DNA of 64,000 bases. Source: Owenia fusiformis. Its lineage: Eukaryota; Annelida; Polychaeta; Sabellida; Oweniidae. Shown one piece after another: positions 22,955 to 58,058 of this stretch (positions are counted from its first letter, which is position 1; every line of letters starts with the position of its first letter). Both the position numbers and the translations under genes were made by a program. The stretch lies in NCBI GenBank assembly GCA_903813345.2, contig CAIIXF020000002.1, forward strand, positions 16,686,467 to 16,750,466, in the 5' to 3' direction. A model generated the notes under the pieces. The model saw only the letters and a program-made list of their open reading frames with translations. It did not search any database and was not told the origin of the DNA.

Positions 22955-23404
22955 ACGGAGTGTAACAAAGTATGAAATTCAACTCCTTATTTGAAAGCTT
23001 CTAGCTTCAATGACACGACCCATACTATATTGAGACTGCTTGATTTAATTTTGTTCACATCTAAGGGGAGGGATTTAGAGAATGGTGCAGGAATGGCTAT
23101 ATCGTTGTATAGCGATATATATCGCTATACTGCCTCTCATTGACTTACATGTGATATATTCGATATATATCGTAGATATATAAGGCTATATAAAATCTGG
23201 CCAGATATACTTCTCCAGATTTTATCATGTTCCTGGCATTTACCCATGACGATATACACGCTATATTCGATATGTATCCTCTTGCCAAGATATAGAGCGA
23301 TATACACACGATGTATACGCTATATTTGATATATATATATATATCCTGTCTTTAAGATATATATCAGATATATATCCCCAATACATGGGTTTGTTGAATC
23401 AGTT

Positions 23405-24480
23405 CTTACAATTAGCCGTGATGATATACACGATATACACGATATATTCGATATATATCCTATTTTCAAGATATAGAACGATATACACATGATATATACG
23501 CTATATTCGATATATATCCTGTCTTCAAGATATATCGGATATATATCCCCAATACAGGGTTTGTTGAATCAGTTCTTAAAATTATTAATGACGATATACA
23601 CGATATACACGATATATTCGATATATATCCTATTTTCAAGATATAGAACGATATACACAAGATATATACGCTATATTCGATATATATATCCTGTGTTTAA
23701 GATATATATTGGATATATATCCCCAATACAGAGATTGTTGAGTCGGTTCTTACAATTGTCCATGACGATATACACGATATACACGATATATTCGATATAT
23801 ATCCTCTTTTCAAGATATAGAACGATATACACACGATATATACCCTATATTCGATATATATATCCTGTGTTTAAGATATATATCGGATATATATCCCCAA
23901 TACACAGATTGTTGAGTCGGTTCTTACAATTAGCCATGATGATATACACGATATATTCGATATATATCCTCTTTTCAAGATATAAAACGATATACACACG
24001 ATATATACGCTATATTCGATATATATATCCTGTCTTAAAGATATATCGGATATATATCCCCAATACAGGATTTGTTGAATCAGTTCTTAAAATTATACAC
24101 GATGATATACACGATATACACGATATATTCGATATATATCCTATTTTCAAGATATAGAACGATATATACAAGATATATACGCTATATTTGATATATATCC
24201 TGTCTTAAAGATATATCGGATATATATCCACAACACAGGGTTTGTTGAATCAGTTCTTAAAATTATCCATGACGATATACACGATATGCACGATATATTC
24301 GATATCCTCTTTTCAAGATATAGAGCGATATACACACGATATATACGCTATATTCGATATATAACTTCTTTTCAAGATATAGAGCGATAAACTAATGATA
24401 TACACGATATATTTGATACATATCCTCTTTTCAAGATATTGACCGATATACACATGATATATACGATTTATTCCATAGTT
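23405..24480. repeat. ~172-bp higher-order satellite array
   Basis: About six units of roughly 172 bp. Each has gatatacacgatatattcg, a cctcttttcaagatatagaa segment, a tatcctgtcttcaagatat segment, and the non-palindromic block aatacagggtttgttgaatc. Short CGATATAT/ATATATCG palindromes occur many times in each unit. The units are over 90 percent alike by eye, and the last units are truncated. Confidence 0.8.
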
Positions 24481-25805: not shown

Positions 25806-26928
25806 ACCTACTCCCAAGTACATTGAGAAATTAAGTATAAGGGCAAGAAGAACAAAATACTTAAAGAAATTAAAATGTGAAGATAATTTTAATCAAAAAA
25901 TAAAAAATATTAAAAAAACTCATTTTTGGAAAAAAATGAATTTTCGGAAATAAATTTAATTTGTGAAAAAAAGATAGTACCTACTTGATATTTGTCTTGA
26001 TATCAAGATATACACGATTTTTTGGAAAAAATGAAAAATTTGGAAAAAATGAAAATTTTGAAAATATGAAAATTTGTGAAAAACTGAAAAAAATTGAAAA
26101 TGATTTTTTTGGAAAACATGTAAAAAAATTTAATATACCCTGATATCACCCCTCTAATCCTGAATATCTTGAAAAGAGGATATATATCGAATGTATCGTA
26201 TATATGGTGTGTATATCGCTCTATATCTTGGAAAGAGGATATATATCGAATATATCATGTATATCATGCTTAAAAAATATAATAACTGATTTAACAATAT
26301 TGTAAATTGGGAATATATATCCGATATATATCTTGAAGACAGGATATATATCGAATACCCTATTTTTCAAGCACGATATACACGATATATTCGATATATA
26401 TCCTCTTTCCTAGATATAGAGCGATACACACGCGATATATACGCTAAAATCTATATATATCCTGTCTTCAAGATATATATCGGATATATATCTTCAATAA
26501 AGAGGTTTTTTAAAAAAAAGTTCTTATATTTATGGATGACGATATACACGATATATTCGATATATACTAGTATCCTCTTTCCAAGATATAGAGCGATATA
26601 CACATGATAACGATATACACGATATATATCCTCTTTCCTAGATATAGAGCGATACACACACGATATATACGCTATAATCGATATATATCCTGTCTTCAAG
26701 ATATATATCAGATATATATCTTCAATACAGAGGTTTGTCAAAAAGTTCTTATATTTATGGATGACGATATACACGATATACACGATATATTCGATATATA
26801 TCCTACCCCAGAGATATATATCGGATATATTTCGATTTGAGGATGGGGAGAGATAGTTTCACGAATATATCGTCTGAGAGACGATATATATCGCTATACG
26901 ACGATATAGCCATTCCTGCACCTTTATG

Positions 26929-28794: not shown

Positions 28795-29560
28795 GTAGGC
28801 ATTTATGTATGATACTTAACCATACTCTACGAAGAATGGATGATTTTTGTAGGCATTTATGTAGGCATTCTTAAAACACGTTACTTTGCCTTAAAAACGT
28901 TACTTTATTGGACTTTAACTTTTCTCCTCGAAGAATGGATGATTTTATATTTAAGCATTTTCAAAACACAGTACTTTGCCAATAAAACGTTACTTTATTG
29001 GACTTTAACTTTTCCCCACAAAAGCCGGAATGTATGATTTTTTATGAAGGCATTCTTAAAACACGATACTTTGCCTTAAAAACGTTACTTTATTGGTCTC
29101 TAACTTTTCTCCTCGAAGAATGGATGATTTTTAGGTAAGCATTTTCAAAACACAGTACTTTGCCAATAAAACGTTACTTTATCGGACTTTAACTTCTCCC
29201 CACAAAGAATGTATGATTTTTTATGTAGGCATTCTTAAAACACGTTACTTTGCCTTAAAAACGTTACTTTATTGGACTTTAACTTTTCTCCTCGAAGAAT
29301 GGATGATTTTATATTAGGCATTTTCAAAACACGTTTCTTTGCCTTAAAAACGTTACTTTATTGGACTCTAACTTTTCTCCTCGAAGAATGGATGATTTTT
29401 AGGTAGGCATTTTCAAAACACAGTACTTTGCCGATAAAACGTTACTTTCGTGGACTCTAACTTTTCTCCTCGAAGAATGGATGATTTTTTAAGTAGGCAT
29501 TTTCAAAACACAGTACTTTGCCGATAAAACGTTACTTTCGTGGACTCGCGTGGACTCTAA
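28795..29560 (+). repeat. Left array of ~87-bp repeat
   Basis: About eight to nine units with the order gaatggatgatttt, aggcattttcaaaacacagt, actttgccaataaaacgtta, ctttattggactttaac, ttttctcctc. At 29560-29790 the pattern continues as more divergent units (aaaaagcgttactttggcc). Confidence 0.85.
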
Positions 29561-31189: not shown

Positions 31190-32775
31190 AAAAGTTAAAG
31201 TCCAAAAAAGTAACGGAAAAGGGCCAAAGTAACGCTTTTTGAAAATGCCTACCTAAATTTCACCAACGCTCGATGGAGGAAAACTAATGGTACAAGAAAG
31301 TTACGAAAATTGGCCAAAGTAACGCTTTTTAAAAACACCAGGCTAAAATGTTCGACACTTGAAGGAATAAAGTTAAAAGTAACGTTTTACTGGCAAAGTA
31401 CTGTTTTTTTAGAATGCCTACATAAAAAATCACCCATTATTCGAGGAGAAAAGTTAAAGTCCACGAAAGTAACGTTTTATCGGCAAAGTACTGTGTTTTG
31501 AAAATGCCTACCTAAAAATCATCCATTCTTCGAGGAGAAAAGTTAAAATCCAATAAAGTTACGTCTTTGAGGCAAAGTACTGTGTTTTGAAAGTGTGTGC
31601 ATAAAATTCATCCATTCTTCGTGGAGATCAGTTAAAGTACAATAAAGTAACGTTTTAAGGCAAAGTAACGTGTTTTGAAAATACCTGCATAAAAAAGTAT
31701 CCATTCTTCGTGGAGATCAGTTAAAGTCCAATAAAGTAACGTTTTTAAGGCAAAGTAACGTGTTTTAAGAAGGCCCTTCATAAAAAACCATCCATTCTTC
31801 GTGGAGTATGGTTAAAGTCGAATAAAGTAACGTTTTACTGACAAAGTACTGTGTTTTGAAAATGCCTAATATAAAATCATCCATTCTTCGTCGAGATCAG
31901 TTAAAGTCCAATAAAGTAACGTTTTTAAGGCAAAGTAACGTGTTTTGAAAAGACTACACAAAAATTCATCCATTCTTCGTGGAGAAAAGTTAAAGTCCAA
32001 TAAAGTAACGTTTTTAAGGCAAAGTACTGTGTTTTGAAAATGCCTGCATAAAAAGCAATCCATTCTTCGTGGAGTATGGTTGAAGTTGAATAAAGTAACG
32101 TTTTACTGACAAAGTACTGTGTTTTGAAAATACCTAATATAAAATCATCCATTCCTCTTGGAGATCAGTTAAAGTCCAATTAAGTAACGTTTTTAAGGCA
32201 AAGTAACGTGTTTGAAAATGCTTACATAAAATTCATCCATTCTTCGTGGAGTATGGTTAAAATCGAATAAAGTAACGTTTTACTGTCAAAATACTGTGTT
32301 TTGAAATTGCCTACATATAAAAATCATCCATTCTTCGTGGAGATAAGTTTAAGTCCAATAAAGTAACGTTTTTAAGGCAAAGCACCGTGTTTTGAAAATG
32401 CTTACATAAAATTCATCCATTCTTCGTGGAGTATTGTTAAAGTCGAATAAAGTAACGTTTTACTGACAAAGTACTTTGTTTTGAAAATGGCCTACATAAA
32501 AAAATCATCCATTCGTAGAGATCAGTTTAAGTCCAATAAAGTAACGTTTTTAAGGCAAAGTAACGTGTTTTAAGAATGCGTACATAAAAAGCATCCAATC
32601 TTATTAGAGAAAGCTTAAAGTCTATTAAGGTAACGTTCTAAAGGCAAAGTAACGTGTTTTAGAAATGGCTACATAAAAAATCATCCATTGACAATGAACG
32701 AACGTTTTAAAGGCAAAGTAACGTGTTTTAAAATGCCTGCATAAAACATAATCTATTCTTCGTAAAGATAATGAT
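31190..32775 (-). repeat. Right array of the same ~87-bp repeat, inverted
   Basis: About sixteen to eighteen units of the reverse complement (aaagtccaataaagtaacgt, ggcaaagtaacgtgttttga, catccattcttcgtggag). The inner divergent units at 31190-31330 mirror those at 29640-29780. Unit number differs between the two arms, so the arrays have expanded independently. Confidence 0.85.
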
Positions 32776-39507: not shown

Positions 39508-42500
39508 ATGGGAAACATAGAAGCACATGATCTTGCTCCAGTTAGAGATGATGAGCGTAAAGAATGCAACCTGAGTAGAAAAGTGACCTACAAGCAGTAT
39601 GTCAAGGTACAATAATTTCTTTTTGTTAATTTTTAAATGTATTATAATGATCCCTCGTCTTGGGTGTTCTAATTACCCATGTCATCATGAAAGACACACC
39701 CAGGAATCTCTCCTTGAATCAGCCTTGTGTTCTACGCTTTTTATTGTCAACCAGGTTTTGTTGTTCTGAGCATGATAAATATTTAGCTTTATTGTTTTTC
39801 TCATATCTTATTTACAATAGACATGATTTTCTAAAATTTTTAAGAGGGCAGTTTCTTTGTACAGAGCAAAAATGTAAACAAGCAATTTTTTTCAAATCAT
39901 AAACATAAAGCTTGCCCCAAATTAACTAGAGTTACAGAAGGCTAATGTATTTTGATGGCTGTACACCAAGAAAACTTATTTCATAATAATGAACAATAAA
40001 CATGCTGTATGAAATGCTAACATTGATGAATGTGTTGCAGCATCTACAGGGAGATTTCTCAGAGGCCTGTATGCTGGAATGGCCCTGGAACATCCGTGAT
40101 GCAGTGTCTTTGTACGAGCGTTTTGATGCATCGTTTCATCGACTTCCAGACATTCCCCCAGAGCTTCCCTTACGACTTCCACATCTTCACTACATCAATC
40201 TTAGTCATAACCAAATAACTGAAATTCCAGAAAGTTTTGCTTTACTTTTCCATCTACGAACTGTGCTGCTGAATAATAATGCCATCAAAAAAATACCAAT
40301 GTCATTCATACATCTAGTCAAACTTGAAAAATTGGACGTATCCCATAATATCCTAAGAGAGCTTCCTGAAACCATGGGAACGATGGAGTCATTACAGCGG
40401 CTCAATGTAAGCCACAACAAATTGAAAACTCTTCCATTGAGTCTTGGAAATTCTAAGATTATCAAAGTCATAATGGCAAACAATAATAGATTGGAAACCC
40501 CACCACAGAGTTTATGTGATTCTGGTTCAGAAGCCACTATCAAGCACCTCAGGAAAATATGCCCTAAAGAGAACTATGCAAAACCTACTAACGTTAAAGT
40601 GAATGTGTTTAAAAGAGTGCGCGGAAATCAGTTGCTTAGCAGTACAGTGCCTAACCCTCAGTCTGCTCAAACGCAGGTATGTGTTGTCAAAGGCAATGTT
40701 TCGAATCAATTTAGATTAATTTAAAACTGTTTCTGGACATGTGACACTCGGTTGCTTTTAGAAAATCTCTTCAAATAGACTTTACATGGATAAAGAAAAT
40801 TGACACAAAGTTCAAAACCCTCAATTTTATTACTTGCAGCAATTACGGGTGGATTACTGCATTAATGTTTTGAAGACCTTTAGATAATCATTTATAAACT
40901 CGTATAATATGAATAATAAATAGAGCAACAAACACTGCATCAAATGTGGAATTTCTAGTAATTTCTAGACGTGCTTAGTCGGTCTAGGAACTCCGTGTAT
41001 CTAGAGATTTCTAGGCGTGCTTAGACGTGCTTAGAGCTGGCGTGGACAGAGCGTGACTAGAGTTTAGAAATCTCTAGGCACGCCGTGGTTAGACACAAGA
41101 CAAAATTAGTCGTTATTTAATTGCCATGTGAGATTTTGCGCTATATATGGAAACATTTAAATTATAATTTACCGCACGTGTTAATATTTCGTGTTTTGCT
41201 TTAGCTAAATACGGGATATCAAATCAAAAAGAGTATGTTTTCACTTTATATCCGACTTGAGTCACGAAAAGTACATCGCAACATGGCTTCTTAATTGTTA
41301 ACTTGTTATAAATTAAGAGGGTCTGTTTAAATGCGTATTTCCACTAATCAACACCCATTATTTCGCATTGACAAGAACCAGGGCCGAATCCAGCATTTGC
41401 TAAGGGGATGACTTTTGAATTATTCCAGGGGTGAGGTCACATTTAATATTTGCTCAAAAATTACACGAAAACTGCTCAAAATGGTGAAAGATTTATTGGC
41501 CAGGGGATACAGTATTATTTTAAACTAGACATCTCTATCGGCGAGGGGGGGGGCTAACTTATTCCAGGGGTGGGGTCACATTTGATATTTGTTAAAAAAT
41601 CACACGAAAACTGCTCAAAATGGTGAAAGAATAATTGGCCGGTGGATGCAGTATTATTTTAAACAATACATTACTGTCGGCGAAGGGGAGGGGGCTAACA
41701 TATAGTTGAAATTACATAATACGCTACCTTGGTGATCTATAAACATAATCTTGTCATAAACAACTACTGATTATTATGTGAACGGATATTTGTAAATTTG
41801 GTTTAAAAAGAAATTGAATATAGGGTAAAAATGAGGGAGACACAGACGTCGGAAGAGTGGGGATAAAATCTAATCAACACTAAGCTGAGACAGAATGAGA
41901 ATCATATGTCTGGACTCACAAGATTTTCATAAACATATTTGTTGATTGCTCACGAAAACAAAAACAAATTTCAGGGTTCATTGGCATCACACAATATTTG
42001 CAAAATGGGGGAGTGCATTTTCCCAGGATTTTAAACAATGCTTTACTTTAAATGTCGCCCCTCATACTTAGCATAGTACGCTTTAACTATCAGATTCAGT
42101 AGCACCCTGCCCTTGATATATTAATACATAGTTTTCTTGTACCCCTTTTCAAAAATACAACGAACTAAATACATAGTAATAATGATCTTGGAATTGATTT
42201 CTTTGATCTGTAATCTAGATCACACAATAACTAATTAACTGTTTGATTGCGTTTTTGCTTCTTCAAAGACGGGATATCCCAAAATTACCTTGATTACAGC
42301 ATTGGCTTTCAAGAGAGTCCATGATTGCAGTCTACATGGTCTATAGGCTATTTTTAATTCCTCGATATTTTAGTTGTGTATCTTTGAATCTGATTATCAT
42401 ATACAATTTACTTTAACCAATTTTACCCGTTTTTTGAACTTCAAAACTGTCACATACATATTGGTGGTCACTAATCATATTAGGACCAATAACAAATAAC

Positions 42501-45500
42501 ATAATTAAAACTGGAAAACATACAATACATATTCATCATCTCATCTATTTCTCCGGTTTGTATCTCCCGGTAATCTTTATGCCTTGAGCCACCCCCCCCC
42601 CTTACAGATACTTTAGATACACTTATTTTGACGCTACTTAATTTGACGAATTTGCTCAATTTCAAATATTGGCGGCTATTTAATTTGGCGGAATCAGGAC
42701 TGAAGTTTAATTTTTGTCTATGTTTATGCATGGGCTATAAAAAGATTCTCTTGAAAGCCCATGGTTTATGTCATTAGGACGGGTATTTACTAAGATATTT
42801 TCTGTATTTCTTTTGGGATAATGTATGACATGTTGATGACATGCTCAGTTCCCGGCTCAGTTGACAGGAAAAGGGGCCCCACAAGTTTAATTTCTGAAGT
42901 GCATTTGACAAAAATTCCAAACTGAAATTTGACGGATTTTAATTTGGCGGATTTTCTGACTCCGTCAATCCGTCTAATTAAAACGGGAGCCAAATTAAGT
43001 ATCTTCAGTTATATCAATATTATTTTGTATCTATCTGACATTATAATTTCGAAGAGAGATTCTCCGGGGAACATTCTGGATTTCGAACATAATAAACTTA
43101 ATTTGAAATTGAATCTGAAATTCTGTCAGAATGGAATACATGGACCTGGTTACATGGTTTATCTTATTCTAAATGGACAAATAAGATCGCAGGGGCAGGA
43201 AACTCCCCCGTTGTTGACATTTTGTTCATATAAAAGGCATTTGCATTAATCCTTTTGATAACTTTCTTTCGTAGTTGGTCTCTTGACCCGAAACATTCTG
43301 GCTACAACAATACAATTGAGTTTTGGAGAAAAACCGCCCTAAGAGGAACGTTGGAGCTTTTTAAGACCACATTAAGCCCCTACTTTAACTAACATCTTAG
43401 TAACCCATGTTAAGGCCAAGCTTTTCCAGGATATCTTCAATCAATCCTCAACCCCTGTTAAAGACCCATTTTACAGGGTGTCTACACCGGGGCCTTCCCC
43501 CTTGACCCTCGTTAAAATCCTACTTTTGAAGGTAACATACCCCTTCAACCTCCCTTCAAAACCCTACTTGTACAGGGTACCTACCCCTAAATCCCATATT
43601 AAAGCCCTTATATTTGCCGGGTACATACATACCCCCCTCCCTCTCAAGCCGTACTTTTGCTGTTCCCCACAGCTGAATTCATTTGTGAACTATTATTTTG
43701 TATAATGAATCCTGGTGGATGTCACTTGTGATATCTGTAAAATATACAAAATGTACATTATATATGCGGTCTGGGGTGTGAGGGGGCTCACTTTAAAAAA
43801 ACAATTTGGGAGGTCTCACTTTTGACAATCAGAGGCAAAGGTCTCAAATTTGTTAAACAAAGCATGGAATGCCCATGAACCAATTATGAATATTATCATA
43901 TGAAAACAAAATATTAATTCCTTATAATCAAAATACTTCCTTGTTTTTATAACTGCTGAACCACCTTGATTACAGAAGACATACCGTGGAGTAGTCTAGA
44001 AATAGTTTTTCAAGCTTAGGACCTATAGCCATTTATCATGTGGATCGACACTGTTTATTTATTTGCATAGATATGTTACTGGCCTTGGGAGGCACATGAT
44101 GCCTTCTAGCAATTTCAGATTTGTATTGTTTGAACTTCTATTTTGTTTAATGCACACTTCTGATCACCATATCAAATCATTTGAATCGTAAAGATGATCA
44201 TTCAAATAATTTTGATTGAGGAAAATGTTTTCCATGGAAAGCCGTGAGTACGCTTTGCAAACTATCTCTGGACTCTCTCTCTCTCCGGACGGCAGAGGGG
44301 GGGGGGGGGGGGGGTTGCGATGAGCGCGAAGGCACCCCCCCCCAAAAAAAGCTCATAAAAATATAACCATTAGATAGAAGAAATGAGCTTTCAATTTTTT
44401 TATTTGAAGTTTCAATCTCATTTTTGAAGAATTTTGAAAGATGCATCAATTTTTGTAAAATTCAAAATATATCTTAACATTTTTTGGGCTCGCTTAATAA
44501 GTTATGCCACGATCGCACATCATGACATCTCATTTCTTCTCAGTCCTGAGATGATGTTTCAGGTGAAACAGAAAGATGCTATGAGTATCAGAATGGGATC
44601 GCACCACATGGGGAGTAGTTTCCAGAAAGATTAGAATAGGGTGGGTGGGGTAGCCTTGCCCAAGTCGTATCTTTTTCCTATATTGATTTCTATTATTCAA
44701 GATCAGATAAGTAAAAAATACCGACTTGGAAAAGGCCGGGGAAAAGGCTAAGGATGGGGGTGCAAGAAGGTATCCCGGCATAAATAATGTCAGATCAACA
44801 TCCTAGATATAGTGATATCTGGACACCCCCTCCCCCATCTAACGGCCCTGAGATTCAAAGAGCTCTTTGAAAGTGTCCAAAAAATGATGAAAACTGCATG
44901 TGATTGAAATTTTGGCCAGTAAGAGTTCCAGCCCCCCCCCCCCCTCCCCATCTACCCTTGGCTCTTACCATGGACATGGAGGAAATTTAGGAGTCATTTT
45001 CAAATGCCCGATTACAAGATTACAGTGATTTATTTCCGCCCTTACATAACAGTGTTGTTGGTGGGCAGATGAATTCGAGTATGTATTGATCTAGTTAATT
45101 AGTGAATACAGATAGATTAAAGGAAAAGTGACTTGAAAGTGAATTCTCAAAATTGAGAATTCTGATTGTAATCAAAACTATATGAATTGATACTAATCGC
45201 ACGGACATGGACTAGTATTTTGAATCATTTCATATCCTATCCAACAGCAAGTGAAATCAAATGATCAAGCTACATTATTTATTGAAACTTAAATAAGGGA
45301 CAATATTTTTTTTACCTTTTATGTTAGTTTCAGATGTTGCTTGCAATTTCTTGAGTTTTTGAGGCGTACTAATGGCCACTTGTATAATCATTAGAGTTTT
45401 TAATGCGCACTTTTGGTCTATAGGCCTGTCATTGAGGTACATTCTAAAATTGTCTCGGTTTATCAGGTTTAGATTTGGTCATTTTGACTATATATAATTG

Positions 45501-48500
45501 TTAAGTTTTAAGCGCAGTTTTGGTCTATATGCTTATAATAGAAAACTTTAAGGAGATGATTTGGTCTACGCTACACTTTGCATTCGTTTGACTTACTTTC
45601 TTAAAGGAGAGCTTCGTCTTCGTAGTTTAACTAGACTCTGCACGCAGGGTAGGTCTACGCCATAACAAAACCTTTAAAAAGAGGCATACTATTGGTCTAG
45701 AGCGGAAAGTAAGGCGTATTAGAGGTCTTCTTTTAGTTTACGCCTCAAAAACCTATCAAAACGTAATTTGAATAAATGAACGTTAATATCCTCTTTATGG
45801 AACATTAGACCTTGATAACTCTGAGTTACCATATTCGGGTGGGGTACATCTTTTACTTTTTACATTTTATATTGATCATATTTTTGCCCTCCGGCTACTG
45901 GGCAAAGTCCGATTACTGGTACAGAGAAATAGAGCCCAATCTAGAAAATACCCCCCCCCCCCATACATTCACTATAATTAAGTCGTTGGTGAGTTCGGAT
46001 GTTTTTCAAGTTTAAGTTTATGCTCAATCCAGATAACATCTTCTTTATAATAAAAATAAAAAGTACTTTTATGTAGATATATAACTCCGATATCTATACA
46101 TTTCCTGTAAGAATGTGGCAACGAAAATGGGGCAACAAGACCTGGGCCTAATGCAATTCTAGTTATCTGTTTTCCTGGTTTGTTTGACACGGAGACATGT
46201 TTGAAATGGGTAAACATTGCAATCGGTATGTTTCAAGGAGGCCTCGGGGGAATGACGACCCATGAAACCTAGACATGTTTATAAATTATAGATCAAGATA
46301 TAATATTTTCAGGCCCGTAGTCAGGATTTACAGGGGGAGCGGTTTTACCATGGGGGGGGGGGGGTTGCCAAGGGAGTGGGGGGGGGGCTTTTTGACAGTT
46401 TGGGCAAAACATCATTTGGCCAGGAGGGGGAGCGGCCGCTCCCTCCGCTCCCCTTGGCTACGGGCCTGAATTTGGAAAGCAGCTAAAAGGTCGTCGTTTT
46501 GTGAAGAGGGGATGGGTGATTAGCAGCATTAGAAGTCGAACGAATGCAAGGGTAGCCATAGACTATTATGTCATTATGCTAAATCATGTCATCTACATGT
46601 ACATTGGTACACTTACAAAATAAGGAAATAAATTGTTCAATCAATCAATTACTTTTTGCTATCATCTAATGACGCTACAGAACAAATTTGTCTCCGGAAT
46701 AACTGGAAGTTTTAATAACAATCATGTACAATTTTCTGGGAACGATAGATGTATGTGCGATGTCCGAATAAATGATTGTGGCAAAGATTGCGATTTGCTA
46801 GATTCTGATTTTGGAATTTCTTTGATCAAATTGTACCTCACACGCAATGTCAGAAGTGAGATTGAATGTCCAAATAGCATGGTGAAAGCCCGACTAAGAG
46901 ATGCCATTCCATTTTCTTGACTGGAGATTTATCGCTCAATCCCACACTAGACATTTAATGTTAAATAACAGTGAGATCTAAAATTCATATCTTAAAATCT
47001 AAAGTCGAGTTTCAGAGATTATAATTTCATTGGTAAAATGCAATCAGAAAGAACCTTTAGATTGCTGGGTCTAACACCTTAGTAGAGTATACCCCCTCCC
47101 AAATCACAACCACGGTCTATTTTTTAATTAAAACTCTTTCCCTATCCTATAATGAAAATAAATATAATTGGAGTGAATTGCATGCATTTCGAATGAAGTT
47201 ATCATATTTTTAGTATTTTATTAGTTCAAACAGGTTTACATAAGATGCATAGAAGTGACAAAGGGAAACATTTCAATTTCTAACTCTACAATTGTAATCA
47301 TACATGTACATACCAGACACATGTATACATGTGCATCATCATGATCTTCACTGGACATTATAAAAATGGGAGAATAGGGGAGGGGGGACTTGGATTACGT
47401 CCTTTAGAAATGAACGCAGGTTTAGAAAACTGCAATAGATGCCATTTTTCATGATAGGGGGGTTATGAAAGAGCTTGTTCGTAATTTAACGTGCAGAATT
47501 ATGGTCCTTTTGGAATAAGTTCTACCTTTCGTAGTATTATTCCGATTACTAGTAAGTATAAACACGAGGTGCCAACTCCGACCGTTAATTTGAATTTTAT
47601 ACCTACACCTGTTTGGAAATCAAGGATTGTGAATCAATATACTGCACCGTTTTTCTTCAAATTTGCTCCATTAAAAGAAAACAAATTTTTCTGATGGTTA
47701 GATTATACTGTTATACAGACTGAGAGTCCCTCCTTTTAGCGGCGTTTGGATCCCCAGCTGTCAGTGAGAAGCGCTTCACACAGCTTGGGACCGGCCCCGA
47801 CAGCAATGCACCGACAGAGAGGCATTTTTGTTTTGCTTTTAATGGAACAAAAACGGTGCATTATGAGACTCATAATCTTTGATTTTTAAACACATAGTAG
47901 GTTTGAAATTCAAACTAACGGTCGTAGTTAGGACTCTGTGATAAATGTTTAATTAAGGGATATTGAATTATTAGGGGCCCTGGAGGAACCAATGTGGAGG
48001 GGTCATAATATTACAAGTTCACGTGCACTTTGTCTCTAAAACGTTTAGTTCAACTCCTCTCAAATGATAAAGTTAATACATACACTGGAATATTTTGGAT
48101 ATAGGGAATATCCTGAGGGATATACAATATATCTTCCCGAGGGCCCAAAGAGACCAAGGGAAGATATATTGTATATCCCAAGGGATATAATGCGGGTCAT
48201 ACGATTGATATGTCCCGGATCCTTGCTGGAGCGGGACATACGAGAAATATTTACCCGGATCTGAAATATATTCCCGGTTGATGTCTCTGAAACCTCATCA
48301 GGTATTGAATACGTAGTATTATGTACAGCAAGGTCTAGAATAATTTGCGAATCTGGAAGGGAGAGATTGACAAGGGGACATCCCAAGGTGGTTCCGAAGC
48401 AAATAACTAGGGGTGGAATTAAATATCGTAATGGGTAGGGGGTATCTGATCTGCAAACCCGTCTTTTTGGCTCGGTCTTGAAATTCTTTAGCGCAAATGT

Positions 48501-51500
48501 TTTTACGATGTTAGTCCCCGCTTTTTGAAAATTGTTAAAACACACTCAGACCTGAAAGTGGCACGTACAACACAATAAGGAAGTAAAGAACAAAATATCT
48601 CATTAATACGGTTGACTGTATAATTCTCTCAATTTTCCATTTCTCATTGATGTCGAGTGTTATACTGTGCGTTAGTGGTATTGATGGACTGGTAAGGATT
48701 ATGACGACGATAGCATTTTTAAAGCTTTGACTTGTTTGAATTACCCCCCCCCCCCCTCATAAGTCATTCACATTCATTCAAAATATGAAAAATCAAAAAC
48801 TTAGGAAAGCAACTGACTACATCGATCAATATGCCTTTTATAAAATGCCTCTTATAGCAATGCCCCGAGCAATGCAGTAAAACGGTTGAAACTGGAAGCG
48901 TAATTGAATAAAGAAGCACAAAAAGTAAGCTAAGGTTAACTAATAAAAACAAGACAAGCAACATTCTATCTACAATCAAGCTGAAATAAACATGTGCAAT
49001 CTCTTAGCCTGGAGGGGGAGGGGTTAAGAGGATGTGAGCGACCAAACGTTTGTACAAAATCATGGCGTTTTTCTCAGTGATTTTTAAGTGATTTGGGGCC
49101 AAAATGTGACCTCTTGGATTTTGGATTAAAAAGCAAACCACCCCCTTGTCAAACCTGACATTAATAAGTAATAAGAAATCAAAACAATAGATACTTGGAA
49201 AGAAGTAGATCATCACCGCCAACAGAGAGAGCTACATTACTAATTATTATAAATATCTCAGGCCCGTAGCCAGGGGGGGGGGGGTTCGCAGGGTTCGGGC
49301 GAACCCCCCCCCCCCCCCCCTTGGCCAAAAATTCTTTCAAAATCATGCAGTTTTTCACCATTTTGAGCACTTCTCAAGTGATTTTAGCCATATTTGGGCC
49401 AAAATTGTCAAATGTGAACCCCCCCTGGAAATTTTTGAAAAATGAACCCCCCCCCCTTGGCAAATCCTGGCTACGGGCCTGAATAAAAAGATAACGCAAA
49501 GACCATTATTATGAACTTTCAAGTCGTATAACATGTAACTGTTGGCATAACATAACGTATAAACGCCCTGTAGTATAGCCCTGTAACGAAAGATTTCAAA
49601 ACAGCCTTCGTTAAGCTTTAATCAATCGGTCCTGACTTCGACCGTTAATTTGAATTTTTGGCCTTCCAGATGCTCGAAAATCAAGGATTGCGAGTCTCAT
49701 ACTGCACCGTTTTTCTTCAACCTTAAACCATTAAAGCAAAACGAAATTGCCTTTCTGTCGGTGCATTACTTTATTGTAAAGAGTCCCTCGTTCTAGCAGC
49801 GTTTTGGTCCCCAGCTGTTAGAAGGCCTTCTTACACCTGGGGACCAAAATGCCGCTGGAAGTAGGGACTCTGTTTAAGAGAAAAGTGTACTAACAGAAAG
49901 GGATTTTTATTATGCTTTGGATGAAACAAGTTTGAAGAAAAACGGTGCAGTATCGAGACTCGTAATCCTTGATTTTCAAACATCCGATAGGCCAAAAATA
50001 CAAATTAACGTTCGAAGTTAACACCGCGTGTTAATGTACTGTTTAAAACACAATAGGCGTTTGGGTGCGATAACCAATAAAAAATAGAACCATGAGATAG
50101 AAGAAGAAAAGGGTAAAATGTTTTTTATTTTGGGCCTCTATCAATATTTGTAAAATTCAAAATAAATTTAGTGGTCTGTTTTAGCCACAATGGTACCCCC
50201 TGACTGATAACCGAAATTCGTTTGGGCATCACCCCCCCCCCCCCCCCCCCCCCCCGACTGAAAGCTGACATGATTGTACATTTTGAGATTCGATCAACTT
50301 GAGTTCTTCTGGGAATGGTGCATCGACATAACATGGACTGGTGAAATACATGATGGTATCCCGATCATTGGAATGGTTAATGGTGTATTTGAAAAGTGCT
50401 CACAATGGTGAAGAGCTGCACGCTTTTGAAAGATCTAGACTTTTTGGCCGGGGGAGGGGGACTTTCACCAACCCTTCCAAAGGGACACGATACATTTCTC
50501 GAGGGCTCAGAGGGCCAGAGGTTAATATCATGTTGTCACAGTGTATAAAACCATAGGCCATATTCAATTCCGATCATGATATTCCTAACTCTCTTCAATG
50601 AAATCTGAAGTTCGAAGTCCATATCTAAACTTTGCATGATGAAACAAAACCAGAAGTCTTATATCATAAGTCTACAAAATATCCGATGACTTAAAATGAC
50701 ATTTTGAAATATAAAATTTATTGAATAATATAAACACACCAGCATCAAAAAAAATCAACGAAACAATATAACAGCGACCAAACAAAATCGCTTGTTGCTC
50801 AGATGTCTATGACTTTAACTGTGTCAGGGCATGATGATGAAATTACCATTCGCCTGTGTTTAATAGGCTCAAACAGAGCTTCATACTCCTTTCGTTTCAA
50901 AATCTCTTAATTTTGAAATGGGAGATGAATTCAATCTTTGTTAGCGAGTTTTGAGGTGAATGCAATTTTTGTGAGAGGGATTGGTCAGGACAATGCGATT
51001 TTCTTTTCGAGCGATGGACGATGGGCGGTAAACACAATATCGCGTCTTCATTACGTACCCCTTCCATTAGATTGGCAATCGTGTGTTTTCATTTCGAAGC
51101 ATATCAATATTTAAATCTAATTATTTCCTCAAATTGCAATGCTAGATCTAGTAGTTCAGTTATTTGTGATATTTGACGAATTTATCTAAATCGCCAATCA
51201 TAATCGGGCTTTGATTAGATAGGTGGCCGAAAAGGGGATCCTGTTACTAATTTTATGGAGGGGGGGGGGGTGTATGTAATATCGACCACCGTCCAAACAA
51301 TTATTTCCTGTTCAATATGATTCGCAAGTATGATCACTGTGCATCAAATGTGGAATTTCTTGCAATTTCTAGACGTACCTGTAGGATGGTCTAGAAACTC
51401 CACGTATCTACCGGGAGAGGCAACTTAAATGAATATGTTAATTGCGTCCATAGAAAGAAGCAAGGGGGGGGTGCAATAAAGATAAAACCATGAGAAAGAA

Positions 51501-54500
51501 AAAGCTCAATTTTGAAGAAATTTTTGTAAAATTTAAAATAAATCATATTTTTATGGCTTGTTTATGCAACAATCGCATCCCCGTGACTGAAAATCGAGAA
51601 GTTTTTTGCGATCGAAGCCCCCCCCCCATCCTGAATGAAAGCTGGCTTCGCCCCTGCCCTATGATACATTGCAGACACAATAGATGAACACATAGTTTTT
51701 TCATCCATTTGGTCAGACGCACAATAATAATACTATTCTAGTATCTTGCTTGATACCCGGGGTTTGATGTAACAACTTGATAGTTATTACTAATTATCAG
51801 TACAGCTTGTTTGGTATTTTATTATTCAATCATATATGTAAAACGTCATGGCATACGTGAACAGTTCGTTATACAAAATAATAAATAAAATAGATAAAAG
51901 TAATTAGTATATTTCAGTGAAAATATGTCTAAATTATGAATGTTGATCATAATTGCTTATAACAATATACATTCACCTGATTCGATAATTACTTTATTCT
52001 AGATTTCAATCATTAGTCTCAAGGCGTGCCAAGACTTTTTGTCACACTCTAAGCACGTCTTTGCACTGCGTGTGCTTAGACGTGCCTAGAGATGTCTAGA
52101 GTTGGTTTCATCGCGTACCTAGACGTGTCAAAACTAGTCACGCCTAAGCACCTGGCGTGCTTAGACTTAGTTTCTAGACGTGCTTAGTCTAGAAATTCCA
52201 TTTTTCACGCAGTGAAAACACAATATGGTGTTAACTTTTCTAATATATGTGACACCTTCTCTAATATATTTGTATATTACAATCTCCAGTATAAGATTTA
52301 CCTTAATTAGTACAAGTACCTTGCTGTTACCTTTTCAATGTATGTGTTACTTCGAGTACGGTATATGTTTCGTTTTCTAGTACATCCAGCAGCAGACATA
52401 TACAAGCAACACAGTGATTAAAATCAAAACACCTCTCTTGCCACCACTTGGATCTAGTCAGTACCAGGCTTATGAACTTAGAGATAAGATTGTTGGTAAG
52501 TACATTTACTCAAGGATTTCCTGAACAATAATTGAAGCAAACTAAACTAAGCTTCCTAAGAATTGAAATATGCCAAAACGGTTCTTTATGACTCAGCTTA
52601 AGCAGGGGTAGTATCCACACCTTTTATAAACCATAAGTGAGCAAGCCCCCAATGTGGATGTCCACACATTTCCAGCTAAAATAGGAATGCATTCTAGAAC
52701 TGATTATTAGATAGTGCATATGCTTGCTAAATTTTGAGGTCCCTTACACTGTAACTCATGTTCTCAATTTTCGTTTGTGCATTCTGAGCCAACTGATGTA
52801 TTGATTATAAAATTTCAGGGATCCAAGTATGAAAATCTATTTGTATTTTGTATTTTTGCACAAATAACTGTTCATCAATCTGTTAAGGTCAGGGTGCATG
52901 ATGGGAAATTTTCTGCATTCCTCAATTGAGTCACATGTTATTTTTCAAACAAGAATCACTCCTTCCCCACATTGTCTATATCTTCCAGTTTTGCACAAAG
53001 AGTGCACTTATGTACCTAGAAAAGATTTGTGAGAAGAATGTTTTGATAAAGTGTATACAAAACAAGAAAATTCAGTCAAAAAAATCAGAAAATTTTCAGA
53101 ATTTTTTTTCACTGAATTTTCTCATTTTTATACATTTTACAAAGGAAACCTTCTCACAAGGCTTTTCTAGGCACATAAGTGCACTCTTTGTGCAAACTTG
53201 GAAGATGTAGACAATGTGGGGAAGGAGTTATTCTTGTTTGAAAAATAACATGTGACTCAATTGAGGAATGCAGAAAATTTCCCAACATGCACCCTGTCCT
53301 TAAAATCAAATGAAAGGTACAATATATGTACCACATAATGATAATGAAAACAAATAAACATAATATTGATAATTAAGTTAGACATGTTCCCTTGTTTCTA
53401 TTATGAGGAGCAAAATAAACCATTAAATATATTTTAAACATTTGTTTTAACTGATTTCAGGTCTTATCTATGGTGCTGCCATAGGAGATGCAATAGGCAT
53501 TGCAACAGAGTTCATGAGTCGCGATGAGTGCCTTTTCCACTATGACGTCAATTCCTTGAAATACACTGACATAGTACGAGACCAACATAGAGTGCATTGG
53601 AAACAGGGTGATTGGACAGGAGATTTTGACCAATGTGTATGTATGCATATGAATTGATCATCTGGTGATTTAAGCCTTTGGCATTTACTTTAGTTTAGTG
53701 ACTTGATACAATTTCAAAATATTTGCCAACAACTTGACTCGCTCTTCAGAAATACTATCCTGATAGATTTATGAAATGTTACTGGAGTGAATGGCATAAT
53801 ATCTCCCAAAGCATAGATCTATTTTCACATCTGTAACATTCCGTAATTAATTTGTTCATTATTTGCAGGTCTTAGTGCTAGACTCCCTGTTACATTGGGG
53901 TGGTGTCATTGATGAGCTAGACTTTGCTAAGCGCCTAGATGAATGGTACTATCATGGCTTTCCAGAACTCAAGGATGTTGAGGGATTCACCCTGTGCAAT
54001 ACAATTGTAAAGGTATGTACATGTTCAGTACTGTATATATTTTTGTGATACATTAGCTAATATATTGCTTGATATACTGAGCAATAGAAAGCTACATGTA
54101 TACATACATGAACAATACTGAATAGATACAATGAACATAATGTGGAAGACTCACAATTTGACATTTGAGTTTGTGGTTATTTAGAGCCCTTATTGGTGCT
54201 TTGTAGTTTCAAATTCAAAGGATTTAAAAGTTAACAGCTTAATTTTGAATAGAATTAAAGCATGAATGGATATGCTTTAACTTTGTAATTCATGTTAAGG
54301 ATAGTGTTTAAATTTCAAATGAAATGCAATGAAATCTAAAGTTATCAAGTTATAAGAAGAAGCGAAATATTTGGAAATGTGTAGCAGTGAGATCATTTTT
54401 TATTCCCTAGGCTGTCAATGACCCAAGTTTCCTCTCCACCCCATATGTTGTAGCAGACAGCATTATTAATTTTAGAGACTGTCATATATCTGACAAAGAA

Positions 54501-57500
54501 AAGGAATCCTGTGAAGAGTTTGCAGACAATGGCTCTTTGACAAGGTGCCTTATGTTAGGTATGTATGTACATAAGGATAACTGTACCCAAATCAGGATTT
54601 TTCTCAAGAGAAGGTATCATATGTTTTGATCAATACGGATGGCATGTAATTAGAGGAAACGCAACTTATTTGACACCCTGTGGATGATTTTGTATATTAT
54701 GAGGCTTTTAATTTCAAGATCAGGAAAAATGATACTCACATGAAGTACATTGTTATTTTACTAACTTGGGATTTGCAAAAATGTTGTCAATTTATGTCTT
54801 TGCCAGTTTTTCAGAAAAAGTACCCAGGAAGGATTTTCACCTACATGTAGCATCTGCATGTGCATTCAGTAATTTTGCTCCATGTTTTTTTTGTTTTGAA
54901 CAGTTTTCAAAGTTTTTCATCATTGGGTCGTGTCAATTCTAACATAGCTAGGAGAGATGAATGTTGATTGGTCAAATATAATGAGGACTCTAATAGAAAG
55001 ATAAAATAGCAGATATACGACTAGTTGTTAAAGTAATTCGCCAAATTAAATCTTTGCCAATTTTCCAATTAATTTTGCTAAACTTGCCAAATTAAGTAAC
55101 AGTATGGTTCACTCAAAGAGATGGTGGCATAATCAGAGGCCTATCCTATACCCCACACCACTGGTCCAGTTTATCTCTGTCTAATGAGCTGTGTTTTGTG
55201 TGTGAATAATGTCAATCACAGAAACTGTTGCTGTAGTTTATCAATAGTAAGCTATGATATTAATATTGGGTTCATTTCATTACATCCTGAATGTCAATAT
55301 AATGTTCCTCTGTTTCTAGCCATTCCACATTTCCACAATATAGATGAGGTGGTTGCCAATACAGTTAGAATCACCAAGGCAACTCATGCAGATGATAGAT
55401 GCATTGCCAGTGCAGTTACCATAGCAACAATGCTAGCTCTGATGCTTCAGGTATGTGTCTCTACTGTACACATTTTAGGCTAACCGTTGACTTGAATATT
55501 TCAAGCAAACTGTTTTATTTAAATTTACAACTGACTAGGCCAACTTAAATCCCTTACGACAATGATAACAAATAACTCAAACAAGGTTTTAATTTACATG
55601 TATTAATCTTCTCAATACTCTAATTCTGTTCACACTTTTTTATAAAACTCAGATATCTCAAAAGCTGTAATACTTATAAAAATATGTGTGATGTGAATAT
55701 GAGCTTGACCTACAGGTAGATAAAAACTAATGTCCCAGTATGTCTTTCAGGTACTTAAGTCAGGTGCTTAGTAGGAGATAAAGTGGTCAGAATTCGAAGA
55801 ACAAATGAAATAAAATTTCCCACACTCTCTCAATAGGCAAGCATGAATGAACTTTCTATGTGTTATGATTACAGGGACAGCACATATCTAATGTGGATGA
55901 ACTGATAAATGCAGCAAAACAGCAAGGACTGAAATATCTCACAGACATCAGACATATAAAGGATTTTGAAGAATATTGCAGCTACACCGATCTGAACAGG
56001 TGTGTACATATTTGCTCCTTATATGTGCCACTGAATCAAGTTAAATACTGTATATTGCATGTGGATATGCATGTACATTGTAATTACAAATATATTCCAT
56101 TTTTTGTTAAACCACCATGTACACTGTATATTTACCCTAAAGGTTGCATTTGTACCACTATTAAGTCGATAGATTAGTATATATGTACAGTGTACATGTC
56201 CTTATACTTCACAATTAATTTGCATCAAAGTCACCAGACCGTAGCATAATTTTGCAATCAAACAACTTTATTTGAATCATTGAAATATTTTATTCAGTTT
56301 AAATGTAACAGAGCCTGAAAGGATGAGCTTCACCTTCAAGCCATTGGGGGCAGCAGTTGTTAGTCTACGAGAGACAAAAGATTTTAGGTAGGTTCATGAA
56401 GTTAATAGCAAAGTTAAGCTTCAAGCTTCCACTGTTTTTCACAACGTAAATGTGGACAAAAAGATAACATTTTTTCATTTTGATTTTATATGCAAGCTTA
56501 ATCTTCCTAATATTAAATCATACTGTATGACCCAAAGTTTAATAAAATGAGAATACATTACCTCAATTGCGTGCATTAAGCCATATGTATGACTAAGAAA
56601 ACCCATCTTTCAGTCCAGCCCCCAGGGTGTGTCAGACCTGTGGCTTGGTGTGTAATACTGAGTTTCAAGTGTACAATTATTGGACTAATGTGCAGTACTG
56701 AGTTTCAAGAGTACAATTAATGAACTTGTGCACAATACTGAGTTTTAAGTGTACAATTACTGAACTAGTGTGCAATACTGAGTTTTAAGTGTACAATTAA
56801 TGAACTAGTGTGCAATACTGTGTTTTAAGTGTACAGTTATTGAACTAGTGTGCAATATTGAGATTCAAGTGTACAATTAATGAACTAGTGTGCAATACTG
56901 AGTTTTAAGTGTGTACAATTAGTGAACTAGTGTGCAATACTGAGTTTCAAGTGTACAATTAGTGAACTGGTTTGCAAAACTGAGTTTCAATCACAAAAGC
57001 GAATATCTGCAATCATTGATCTAGAGCATGATATTGTAATCAGCTATGCAATCAGTGATCTAGTGCACAATATTGTTTCATGTGCACAAGCAGTGATATG
57101 GTGTGCAATTTTGTGTTTCAGCTGTGCAATCAGTGATATGGTGTGCTCTTTTGTGTTTCAGCTGTGTATCAGTGATATGGTGTGCAATTTTGTGCTTCAG
57201 CTGTGCAATCAGTGATATGGTGTGCAATTTTGTGCTTCAGCTGTGCAATCAGTGATATAGTGTGCAATTTTGTGTTTCAGCTGTGCAATCAGTTATATGG
57301 TGTGCAATTTTGTGTTTCAGCTGTGCAATCAGTGATATGGTGTGCAATTTTGTATTTCAGCTGTGCAATCAATTATGTATTGTGCAATTTTGTGTTTTAG
57401 CTGGGCAATCAGTGATACGGTGTGCTCTTTTGTGTTTCAGCTGTGCAATCAGTGATATGGTGTGCTCTTTTCTGTTTCAGCTGTGCAATCAGTGACATGG

Positions 57501-58058
57501 TGTGCAATTTTGTATTTCAGCTGTGCAATCAGTTATATGTTGTGCAATTTTGTGTTTCAGCTATGCAATCAGTTATATGGTGTGCAATTTTGTGTTTCAG
57601 CTATGCAATCAGTTATATGGTGTGCAATTTTGTGTTTCAGCTGTGCAATCAGTTATATGGTGTGCAATTTTGTGTTTCAGCTGTGCAATCAGTAATATCG
57701 TGTGCAATTTTGTGTTTCAGCTGTGCAATCAGTGATTTGGTGTGCAATTTTGTATTTCAGCTGTGCAATCAGTGATATGGTGTGCTCTTTTGTGTTTCAG
57801 CTGTGCAATCAGAGATATGGTGTGCAATATTGTGTAGTAATCATTGTATCAATATTGTTTTTCAGGTGTGCAGTCAGTGACCTCCTTATGTGTGGAGGAG
57901 ACAGTAATACAAACTGCTGTGTGACTGGGGCCCTGCTAGGCTGTAAGGTGGGCTTTGCTAGCCTACCCATGGAATGGGTTGAGGGAATTAGACCCAAGCA
58001 AAAAGACTGGTTGAATGAGAAAATCAACTTGCTTTTGGACATGATGGGAATACCTTAA
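39508..58058 (+). CDS. Leucine-rich repeat / ADP-ribosylglycohydrolase fusion protein
   Basis: Ten exons: 39508-39606, 40041-40676, 52381-52495, 53461-53636, 53869-54012, 54411-54558, 55320-55450, 55875-55999, 56298-56387 and 57866-58058. All phases agree, giving 618 residues. Residues about 75-200 contain leucine-rich repeats of the LPxxL type (LHYINLSHNQITEIPESF, LEKLDVSHNILRELPETM). Residues about 275-610 are an ADP-ribosylglycohydrolase (ARH/DraG) fold, seen as VGLIYGAAIGDAIGIATEF, DNGSLTRCLML, THADDRCIASAV and GGDSNTNCCVTGALLG. Such enzymes remove ADP-ribose from proteins or other acceptors using two metal ions. Two usual ligand aspartates are replaced (WTGDFD for WTDDxD, DSNT for DxDT), so activity is doubtful. 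The LRR and ARH halves are joined across an 11.7-kb intron by phase only, so two adjacent genes are the alternative. Upstream of the chosen ATG the frame stays open but is not conserved-looking. Confidence 0.75.
40934..41105. repeat. CTAGACGTGCTTAG-rich repeat, left-end fragment
   Basis: Starts cactgcatcaaatgtggaat, matching the left end of the element at 51335, and is rich in ctagacgtgcttag-type words on both strands. I could not place a right end, so it is probably truncated. Confidence 0.55.
41416..41705 (+). repeat. Two-unit tandem duplication
   Basis: The segment ttattccaggggtgaggtca … ctgctcaaaatggtgaaaga … cagtattattttaaac occurs twice, about 138 bp apart, each time followed by a short G-rich tract and ggctaac. 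Confidence 0.7.
42600..43010. repeat. Repeat with TACTTAATTTGGCG words at both ends
   Basis: The left part carries gctacttaatttgacgaatt and atttaatttggcgg. The right part carries the inverted motif gccaaattaagtatc. Similar words (cgccaaattaa) occur near 55030 in another intron of the same gene. This is probably a degenerate DNA element without clear borders. Confidence 0.4.
43011..46309. other. Repeat-rich intron interior
   Basis: Part of the long LRR-ARH intron. At 43370-43640 there are degenerate units around a ccctacttgtacagggta word. At 44290-44345 a G17 tract faces a C9 tract. A related G/C-tract repeat occurs at 50050-50300 and 51470-51660. No host exon was recognised. Confidence 0.45.
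45580..45651 (-). repeat. Dispersed repeat, copy B (inverted)
   Basis: Reverse complement of the repeat at 21434-21511, including gagcttcgtcttcgtagttt and ctagactctgcacgcagggt. It lies in the long intron of the LRR-ARH gene. Confidence 0.7.
46310..46468. mobile_element. MITE, CAGGCCCGTAG family
   Basis: Ends CAGGCCCGTAGTCAGG and GGCTACGGGCCTG. The 159-bp element has two G tracts. The flanks ATTTT and AATTT are a weak 5-bp match. Confidence 0.7.
47563..47940. mobile_element. Short foldback element, CACGCGG family
   Basis: Self-palindromic 378-bp element with ends CACGAGGTGCCAACTCCGAC and the reverse ending CTCTGTG. A perfect 5-bp duplication ATAAA flanks it (47558-47562 and 47941-47945). Internal blocks ccgttaatttgaattt, atcaaggattgtga, gcaccgtttttcttcaa and gcggcgttt are shared with the 6.9-kb element. 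The arms have diverged, so it is older than that one. Confidence 0.85.
48117..48179. repeat. Perfect 22-bp hairpin
   Basis: Arms 48117-48138 and 48158-48179 (gggatatacaatatatcttc …) are exact reverse complements around a 19-nt loop. It is inside the long LRR-ARH intron. It may be a foldback element core. Confidence 0.75.
49259..49481. mobile_element. MITE, CAGGCCCGTAGCC family
   Basis: Perfect 16-bp inverted ends CAGGCCCGTAGCCAGG and CCTGGCTACGGGCCTG. The interior holds G and C tracts and ttcaccattttgagcac text shared with 36229-36446. No target duplication is evident. Confidence 0.78.
49623..50030. mobile_element. Short foldback element, CACGCGG family
   Basis: Self-palindromic 408-bp element. 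The right end CCGCGTG and the slightly changed left end CAATCGG are flanked by a perfect 5-bp duplication TTAAT (49618-49622 and 50031-50035). The centre is ggtccccagctgttagaagg facing its complement. It shares all arm blocks with 28571-35459. Confidence 0.85.
51335..52214. mobile_element. 880-bp element with CACTG ends and CTAGACGTGCTTAG motifs
   Basis: The left end CACTGTGCATCAAATGTGGA and the right end, ending ttccatttttcacgcagtg, are imperfect inverted repeats sharing AAATGTGGAATTTCT. Subterminal cttagacgtgc words repeat on both sides. No target duplication was found. Related to the fragment at 40934. Confidence 0.55.
52887..53299. mobile_element. Foldback MITE with TTAA target site
   Basis: About 160-bp inverted arms (GGTCAGGGTGCATGATGGGA at the left, the reverse ending CACCCTGTCC at the right) are flanked by TTAA on both sides (52883-52886 and 53300-53303). 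It sits in the intron before the first ARH-core exon. The TTAA site would fit a piggyBac- or Kolobok-related element, and the termini do not decide between them. Confidence 0.8.
56655..56990 (+). repeat. Minisatellite A in the last intron of the LRR-ARH gene
   Basis: About eight units of 40-43 bp with tgtgcaatactgagttttaa and gtgtacaattaatgaactag. They lack the CAG acceptor word but are recognisably related to array B just downstream. Confidence 0.8.
57077..57840 (+). repeat. Minisatellite B: tandem 40-bp splice-acceptor-like units
   Basis: About 19 units of tgtgcaattttgtgtttcag then ctgtgcaatcagtgatatgg. Each carries a T-rich tract and TTTCAG directly followed by CTGTGCAATCAGTGA. The true acceptor of the last exon, 25 bp after the array, reads TTTTTCAG then GTGTGCAGTCAGTGA. 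Forty is not a multiple of three, so the frame cycles through the array. The open frames it creates are incidental. Confidence 0.88.

What the first reader, a model, noticed from the sequence alone, without database searches (positions are those of the whole stretch)
57077..57866. About 19 tandem decoy 3' splice sites directly before the real acceptor of the last exon
Each 40-bp unit repeats a T-rich tract, TTTCAG and CTGTGCAATCAGTGA. This closely matches the true acceptor and first exon bases (TTTTTCAG, GTGTGCAGTCAGTGA). The array most likely arose by tandem amplification of the splice-acceptor segment itself. If spliced, the decoy at 57801 would give a stop after about 11 codons. The decoy at 57761 is in frame and open, and would add 35 residues before the second metal motif. 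This could act as a tunable splice selector or a mutational hotspot for protein variants.
Basis: partly seen in the sequence, partly recalled or inferred. Interest (0 to 1): 0.85.

Follow-up and report, generated by a model that had tools for sequence, protein, structure and literature searches.

The report
Splice-acceptor minisatellite ("mirage") in an annelid
In the marine worm Owenia fusiformis, the short stretch of DNA that marks where the last part of a gene begins has been copied over and over just upstream, leaving 18 look-alike splice signals in front of the real one; similar structures are known from amphioxus, and nothing yet shows that these copies are used.

Summary
The last intron (56388-57865) of an Owenia fusiformis LRR + ADP-ribosylglycohydrolase-like gene is mostly one 40-bp tandem array: 8 distal units whose acceptor is broken, a degenerate stretch, and 18 proximal units (57102-57820), each with an acceptor AG (17 CAG, 1 TAG). 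The authentic acceptor is the terminal copy: 26 of 30 bases match the unit in register, against at most 18 of 30 at 2911 other YAG sites. No copies were found elsewhere in the genome. The codon facing exon Val558 is Ile in 24 of 25 units scored, and Ile is the commonest residue in the aligned family (27 of 47 rows), so the array seems to preserve an older exon edge. Amplification of the gene's own acceptor module is therefore well supported. Use as a splice selector is not: no RNA was available, a search found no protein with the in-frame insert, and the annotated protein uses 57866. Amphioxus genes have the same kind of structure, called 'mirages' (minisatellite-like duplications of intron/exon boundaries), reported not to disturb regular splicing. 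I therefore read this as a mostly passive, many-copy, short-unit mirage in an annelid: a new member of a known kind.

The parts
39508..58058 (+). Host gene, 10 coding exons: LRR + ADP_ribosyl_GH protein, 618 aa (P0001, Owenia fusiformis)
   Evidence: tblastn of P0001 on the window; Pfam PF03747 E 5.7e-49; name and 100% match
56388..57865 (+). Last intron, 1478 bp, phase 2, between exon 56298-56387 and the last exon
   Evidence: GT..AG ends and joined reading frame identical to P0001
56649..56970 (+). Distal (D) subfamily, 8 units of 40-42 bp in the same register; aligned CAG is CAA or TAA. An AAG lies one base on, but with only 5 AG-free bases upstream in 7 of 8 units (19 in one)
   Evidence: D consensus agrees with P at 29 of 40 positions; no unit site with 20 AG-free bases
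56971..57101 (+). Degenerate units between the subfamilies (one weak AG site, exon start 57044, score -0.5)
57102..57820 (+). Proximal (P) subfamily, 18 units, each with T-rich tract, AG and a copy of the first exon bases; a branch-like CAGTGAT or variant at the same distance in most
57761..57865 (+). Extension made by decoy 57761: in frame, open, +35 aa
   Evidence: no such protein found
57801..57865 (+). Extension made by the nearest decoy, 57801: frame-shifted, stop after 12 codons
57811..57835 (+). Truncated penultimate module, 15 bp short and without its acceptor AG (spacing to the real exon 65 = 40 + 25)
   Evidence: a 25-bp insertion is the alternative reading
57835..57841 (+). Best branch-point-like motif of the real acceptor, TAGTAAT, A at 57840, 25 nt before the last intron base
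   Evidence: recalled weight matrix
57836..57875 (+). Authentic 40-bp 3' splice-site module, flanked by AGTAATC (57836) and AGTGACC (57876) exactly one period apart; likely seed of the array
57866..58058 (+). Last coding exon, CAVSDLLMCGGDSNTN... to TAA
   Evidence: aligned with relatives

Best explanation
A mirage-type minisatellite seeded by the gene's own 3' splice site. A 40-bp module (branch point, T-rich tract, AG, first ~10-15 exon bases) at the last intron/last exon boundary was tandemly duplicated by slippage or unequal exchange, possibly between the similar AGTAATC (branch point) and AGTGACC (exon) that lie exactly 40 bp apart. A diverged distal subfamily lost its usable acceptor; 18 proximal units keep it. 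Splicing most likely still joins to the terminal, authentic copy at 57866, which has G at +1, an unbroken T5 tract and a TAGTAAT branch motif; decoys may be used at low level. Because this is the last intron, decoy use would put the stop codon in the last exon and so should escape junction-dependent decay. Shown: anatomy, register, homology, no copies found elsewhere, codon pattern. Inferred: seed mechanism, site preference, lack of function.
For: Register match and statistics. Matches found only here: 8 DNA matches and 17 forward pattern matches at <=3 mismatches, 0 for the control. The real module agrees with 21 of 23 positions shared by both subfamilies, and at the 8 where they differ has one or the other state (6 P, 2 D, 0 neither): an ancestor-like position. 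Exon edge present in 47 of 53 aligned rows. Codon facing Val558 is Ile in 24 of 25 units scored; Ile is commonest in the family, 27 of 47 rows, Val 5. Annotated protein uses 57866. Amphioxus mirages: same structure, regular splicing not disturbed (PMC3087553 passages). CBS 844ins68: duplicated intron/exon junction, distal copy favoured (PMC2630376 passages).
Against: By the generic matrix P decoys score 5.4-9.8; one (57481) beats the real site (9.0) and all 18 beat the weakest of 8 authentic sites (3.9-12.0), so passive tolerance is not explained by site strength alone. AG has 0 changes in 18 units, though 22 of 40 positions have none, so this shows no selection either way. Matrices are recalled, not fitted to Owenia. 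No orthologous intron DNA was available, and the C5 paralogue has its intron elsewhere, so the age of this intron is unknown. The family rows include Owenia itself and several near-duplicate tick and spider rows.
Confidence: 0.78

Rival explanations
1. Same origin, but functional: the tandem acceptors are used as a splice selector. Decoy joining makes NMD-immune proteins cut before the last 63 residues, and unit number tunes the dose; 57761 makes a +35 aa isoform.
For: 18 of 18 P units keep AG; 16 of 18 have the same 26-nt AG-free zone with the best branch-like motif 25 nt upstream, as the real site has (motif scores 0.8-3.5 against 3.4); acceptor scores within the authentic range.
Against: No protein with the insert found; annotated model uses 57866; D units lost the aligned CAG; 17 of 18 P decoys run into an early stop; amphioxus mirages reported not to disturb splicing. 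No RNA evidence either way here.
Confidence: 0.11
2. Reverse direction: the acceptor and exon edge were captured from, or homogenised by, a pre-existing array.
For: The real acceptor is in register with the array.
Against: The exon edge encodes a segment alignable from cnidarians to chordates; the array, not the exon, carries the family-typical Ile codon; no other copies found.
Confidence: 0.06
3. Unrelated minisatellite whose resemblance to the acceptor is chance plus generic splice consensus.
For: Acceptor-like sites in array units are not rare: 3 of 40 array-strands in this window have one, this array included.
Against: 13 of the first 15 exon bases match, where generic consensus predicts little beyond +1; next best of 2911 sites is 10 of 15.
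Confidence: 0.03

Closest known systems
Amphioxus 'mirages' (BflGb6, BflGb9, Adh3; PMC3087553, abstract and passages seen; the source paper Canestro 2002 seen only as a reference entry, not held)
   Same: Minisatellite-like tandem duplication of an intron/exon boundary; in BflGb6 the 3' end of an intron plus the 5' part of the next exon; many units keep splice signals; edge units left out of homogenisation
   Different: BflGb6 units are 150-160 bp, 6 and 3 copies in two haplotypes (Adh3 10-72 bp); here 40 bp, 18 + 8 full units, in an annelid. Length and somatic instability and undisturbed splicing are reported there, unknown here
ABCA7 intron 18 VNTR, human (PMC5954066; passages seen)
   Same: Short-unit intronic VNTR starting at an authentic splice site (first two bases are the exon 18 donor GT), 23.7 copies of 25 bp in the reference; a donor one unit in is used
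   Different: Donor, not acceptor; polymorphism (about 12-427 units) and splicing effects measured there
CBS c.844_845ins68, human (PMC2630376; passages seen)
   Same: Duplicated intron 7/exon 8 junction; the distal copy is strongly favoured
   Different: One extra copy of 68 bp
CBS 31-bp VNTR c.1444_1467+7(16_21) (PMC2630376 passages; Lievers 2001 seen only as a reference entry)
   Same: By its name the unit spans an exon/intron boundary; 16-21 copies
   Different: Donor side
Introns from tandem duplication (Drosophila: PMC2891723 passages; Zhuo 2007 seen only as a reference entry, not held)
   Same: Tandem duplication multiplies splice signals
   Different: Those create new introns; none is predicted here

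Membership tests
Mirage (minisatellite of an intron/exon boundary) | Tandem repeats spanning an intron/exon boundary: intron 3' end plus exon 5' part | tested here: met
   26/30 in register across 57866, 13/15 on the exon side; 40 bp x 20.0 and x 8.5
Mirage (minisatellite of an intron/exon boundary) | Many, not all, units keep the splice signal | tested here: met
   18 of 18 P units, 0 of 8 D units at the aligned place
Mirage (minisatellite of an intron/exon boundary) | Boundary unit left out of homogenisation | tested here: met
   P units average about 2 of 40 changes from consensus (38 in 18 units); the real module differs at 4 of 30
Mirage (minisatellite of an intron/exon boundary) | Length instability | not testable with these tools
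   one assembly only
Mirage (minisatellite of an intron/exon boundary) | Regular splicing not disturbed | not testable with these tools
   no RNA; annotated protein uses 57866
Dispersed repeat or transposon | Copies elsewhere in the genome | tested here: not met
   8 DNA and 17 pattern matches, all at this locus; the DNA search skips very common words and scores only the best candidates
Regulated tandem alternative acceptors | More than one acceptor used in RNA | not testable with these tools
   no transcripts held
Active ADP-ribosylglycohydrolase (host protein) | Metal-binding TDD and GDxD motifs (recalled) | tested here: not met
   TDD in 1 of 53 rows, D567+D569 in 0 of 47; Owenia has TGD and GGDSN; the domain match itself is strong

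The most novel reading that the evidence does not exclude
A natural 3' splice-site ladder: some 18 near-identical branch-point/tract/AG modules compete with the true acceptor, unit number varies between worms, and decoy use sets the dose of an NMD-immune, C-terminally cut form of an LRR/pseudo-ADP-ribosylhydrolase protein.
Probability: 0.08. Interest if true: 0.72.

Novelty: new member of a known kind. Interest (0 to 1): 0.35.

Why it matters
Cells must choose one AG among similar ones; here a series of near-identical, evenly spaced acceptor modules stands before the true one in a single intron, a natural test of how the terminal copy wins. It also takes the amphioxus mirage phenomenon to an annelid and suggests that such arrays can preserve the older state of an exon edge.

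Tried and rejected
RNA structure hiding the decoys: 57701-57900 folds no better than shuffles (z 0.58). Dispersed repeat: rejected. A decoy-derived protein: none found (one candidate shared words and did not score). The Owenia paralogue on C5 has its intron just before GGDADTN, so it is no outgroup for this acceptor. A 25-bp insertion upstream of the real acceptor was considered (19/20 match after removal); a 15-bp loss in the penultimate module explains the same spacing and keeps the branch-point segment aligned (an alignment as good in 0.8% of window 14-mers). I prefer the second but cannot exclude the first. A unit tree joins the real module to the D stem with weak support (0.35), so I rest on site counts. 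EBV IR1 repeats (PMC12451641 passages): 3-kb units with whole exons, not close. A survey of other Owenia arrays for the same phenomenon was not done.

One search showed that the D units are not free of AG, as I had first written, but have it one base on in poor context.

Full report
Where it is. The window lies in a 498-Mb assembly, and the joined exons are 100% identical to an Owenia fusiformis protein (P0001, 618 aa). It has leucine-rich repeats and an ADP-ribosylglycohydrolase domain (PF03747, E 5.7e-49). Ten coding exons map at 39508-58058 (the boundaries 39606, 40041 and 40676 read by eye). The last intron is 56388-57865 and the last exon 57866-58058.

The array. TRF reports two adjacent 40-bp arrays, 56648-56990 (8.5 copies) and 57040-57835 (20 copies). 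Wraparound alignment puts them in one register: 8 distal (D) units, a degenerate stretch, 18 proximal (P) units and a truncated last module. P and D consensuses agree at 29 of 40 positions. P units carry TTTCAG|CTGTGCAATCAGTGA; the D consensus is TTTCAA|GTGTACAATTAATGA. In D units the aligned CAG is CAA or TAA; an AAG lies one base on, with 5 AG-free bases upstream in 7 of 8 units and 19 in the eighth, so these are poor acceptors. From 56649 to 57835 the array is 1187 of the intron's 1478 bp.

The real acceptor is the last copy. In register, 26 of 30 bases (15 intron, 15 exon) match the P unit; 2911 other YAG sites on both strands reach at most 18. On the exon side alone 13 of 15 match, next best 10. 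The local alignment covers 57836-57880 with score 43; the best of 9602 control windows is 24, of 3000 shuffles 27. Two of three scoring schemes stop at AGTGA; the laxest adds a short stretch after a 6-base gap. The authentic module 57836-57875 is itself 40 bp and is flanked by AGTAATC and AGTGACC exactly one period apart, a plausible slippage pair (suggestive only). The spacing of 65 between decoy 57801 and the real exon is one unit plus 25.

Direction. Searches of the genome found the repeat only here. The exon edge encodes CAVSDLLM, alignable in relatives from cnidarians to chordates; 47 of 53 rows have residues there (Owenia included, several arthropod rows nearly alike). In 31 aligned sites the real module agrees with 21 of the 23 where P and D agree; at the 8 where they differ it has the P state 6 times, the D state twice and a third state never. 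The codon facing Val558 (GTC) is ATC in 17 of 17 P units scored (one with an indel left out) and ATT in 7 of 8 D units (the eighth GTT, Val); two degenerate units were not scored. The family has Ile in 27 of 47 rows, Leu 11, Val 5, Met 4. The simplest reading is that the exon still had Ile when it seeded the array.

Could the decoys work? With recalled generic matrices P decoys score 5.4-9.8; 8 of the gene's 9 acceptors were scored, 3.9-12.0, the real one 9.0. In 16 of 18 the AG-free zone is 26 nt with the best branch-like motif 25 nt upstream, as at the real site (motif scores 0.8-3.5, real 3.4). The real site differs by G at +1 and an unbroken T5. Sites scoring at least 6.4 with 20 AG-free bases occur at 1.59 per kb per strand outside the region, and 3 of 40 array-strands in the window, this one included, have one per unit, so an acceptor-like unit alone is not surprising. 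P units show no special protection of AG: 0 changes there, but 22 of 40 positions have none. Only decoy 57761 is open into the last exon (+35 aa); the other 17 P decoys stop after 12-98 codons. Such stops would lie in the last exon, which from general knowledge escapes exon-junction-dependent decay. A word-based search of 5.8 billion proteins found none with the insert, but P0001's cluster has one member and I saw no Owenia transcript, so this is weak. Local RNA folding is ordinary.

Literature, as abstracts or passages. [quoted passage not shown] many units keep splice signals, RT-PCR suggests regular splicing is not disturbed, and length and somatic instability are reported (PMC3087553). This is the same kind of structure. 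The ABCA7 intron 18 VNTR starts with the exon 18 donor, and a donor one unit in is used (PMC5954066). CBS 844ins68 duplicates an intron/exon junction and the distal copy is favoured; the paper writes of donor sites, although an intron 7/exon 8 junction is an acceptor (PMC2630376). Selection against spurious AG upstream of acceptors is described for Drosophila (PMC10946897).

Verdict. Observation confirmed; origin well supported; function unproven and probably slight. New member of a known kind, in a new phylum as far as the one paper seen goes.

Noticed in passing
53461-58058 (residues 333-341 and 565-571 of P0001): The LRR-fused ADP-ribosylglycohydrolase family looks like a pseudoenzyme: TDD in 1 of 53 rows and both second-site aspartates in 0 of 47.
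   Followed up: partly
28856-29547 and 31376-32689: Two 89-bp-unit satellite arrays whose consensus units look by eye like reverse complements, so the arrays lie in opposite orientation about 1.8 kb apart.
   Followed up: no
23249-24477 and 26372-26830: Two nearby arrays of similar-looking GATATA-rich units.
   Followed up: no
57825-57857: The self-complementary CAATATTG occurs twice, 25 bp apart, around the real branch-point motif and pairs in the predicted fold; the fold of the region is not more stable than shuffles.
   Followed up: partly
L035 1500-2110: An Owenia paralogue on C5 encodes GGDADTN with an intron directly before this motif (read by eye), about 10 codons downstream of the intron position in the window gene.
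   Followed up: partly
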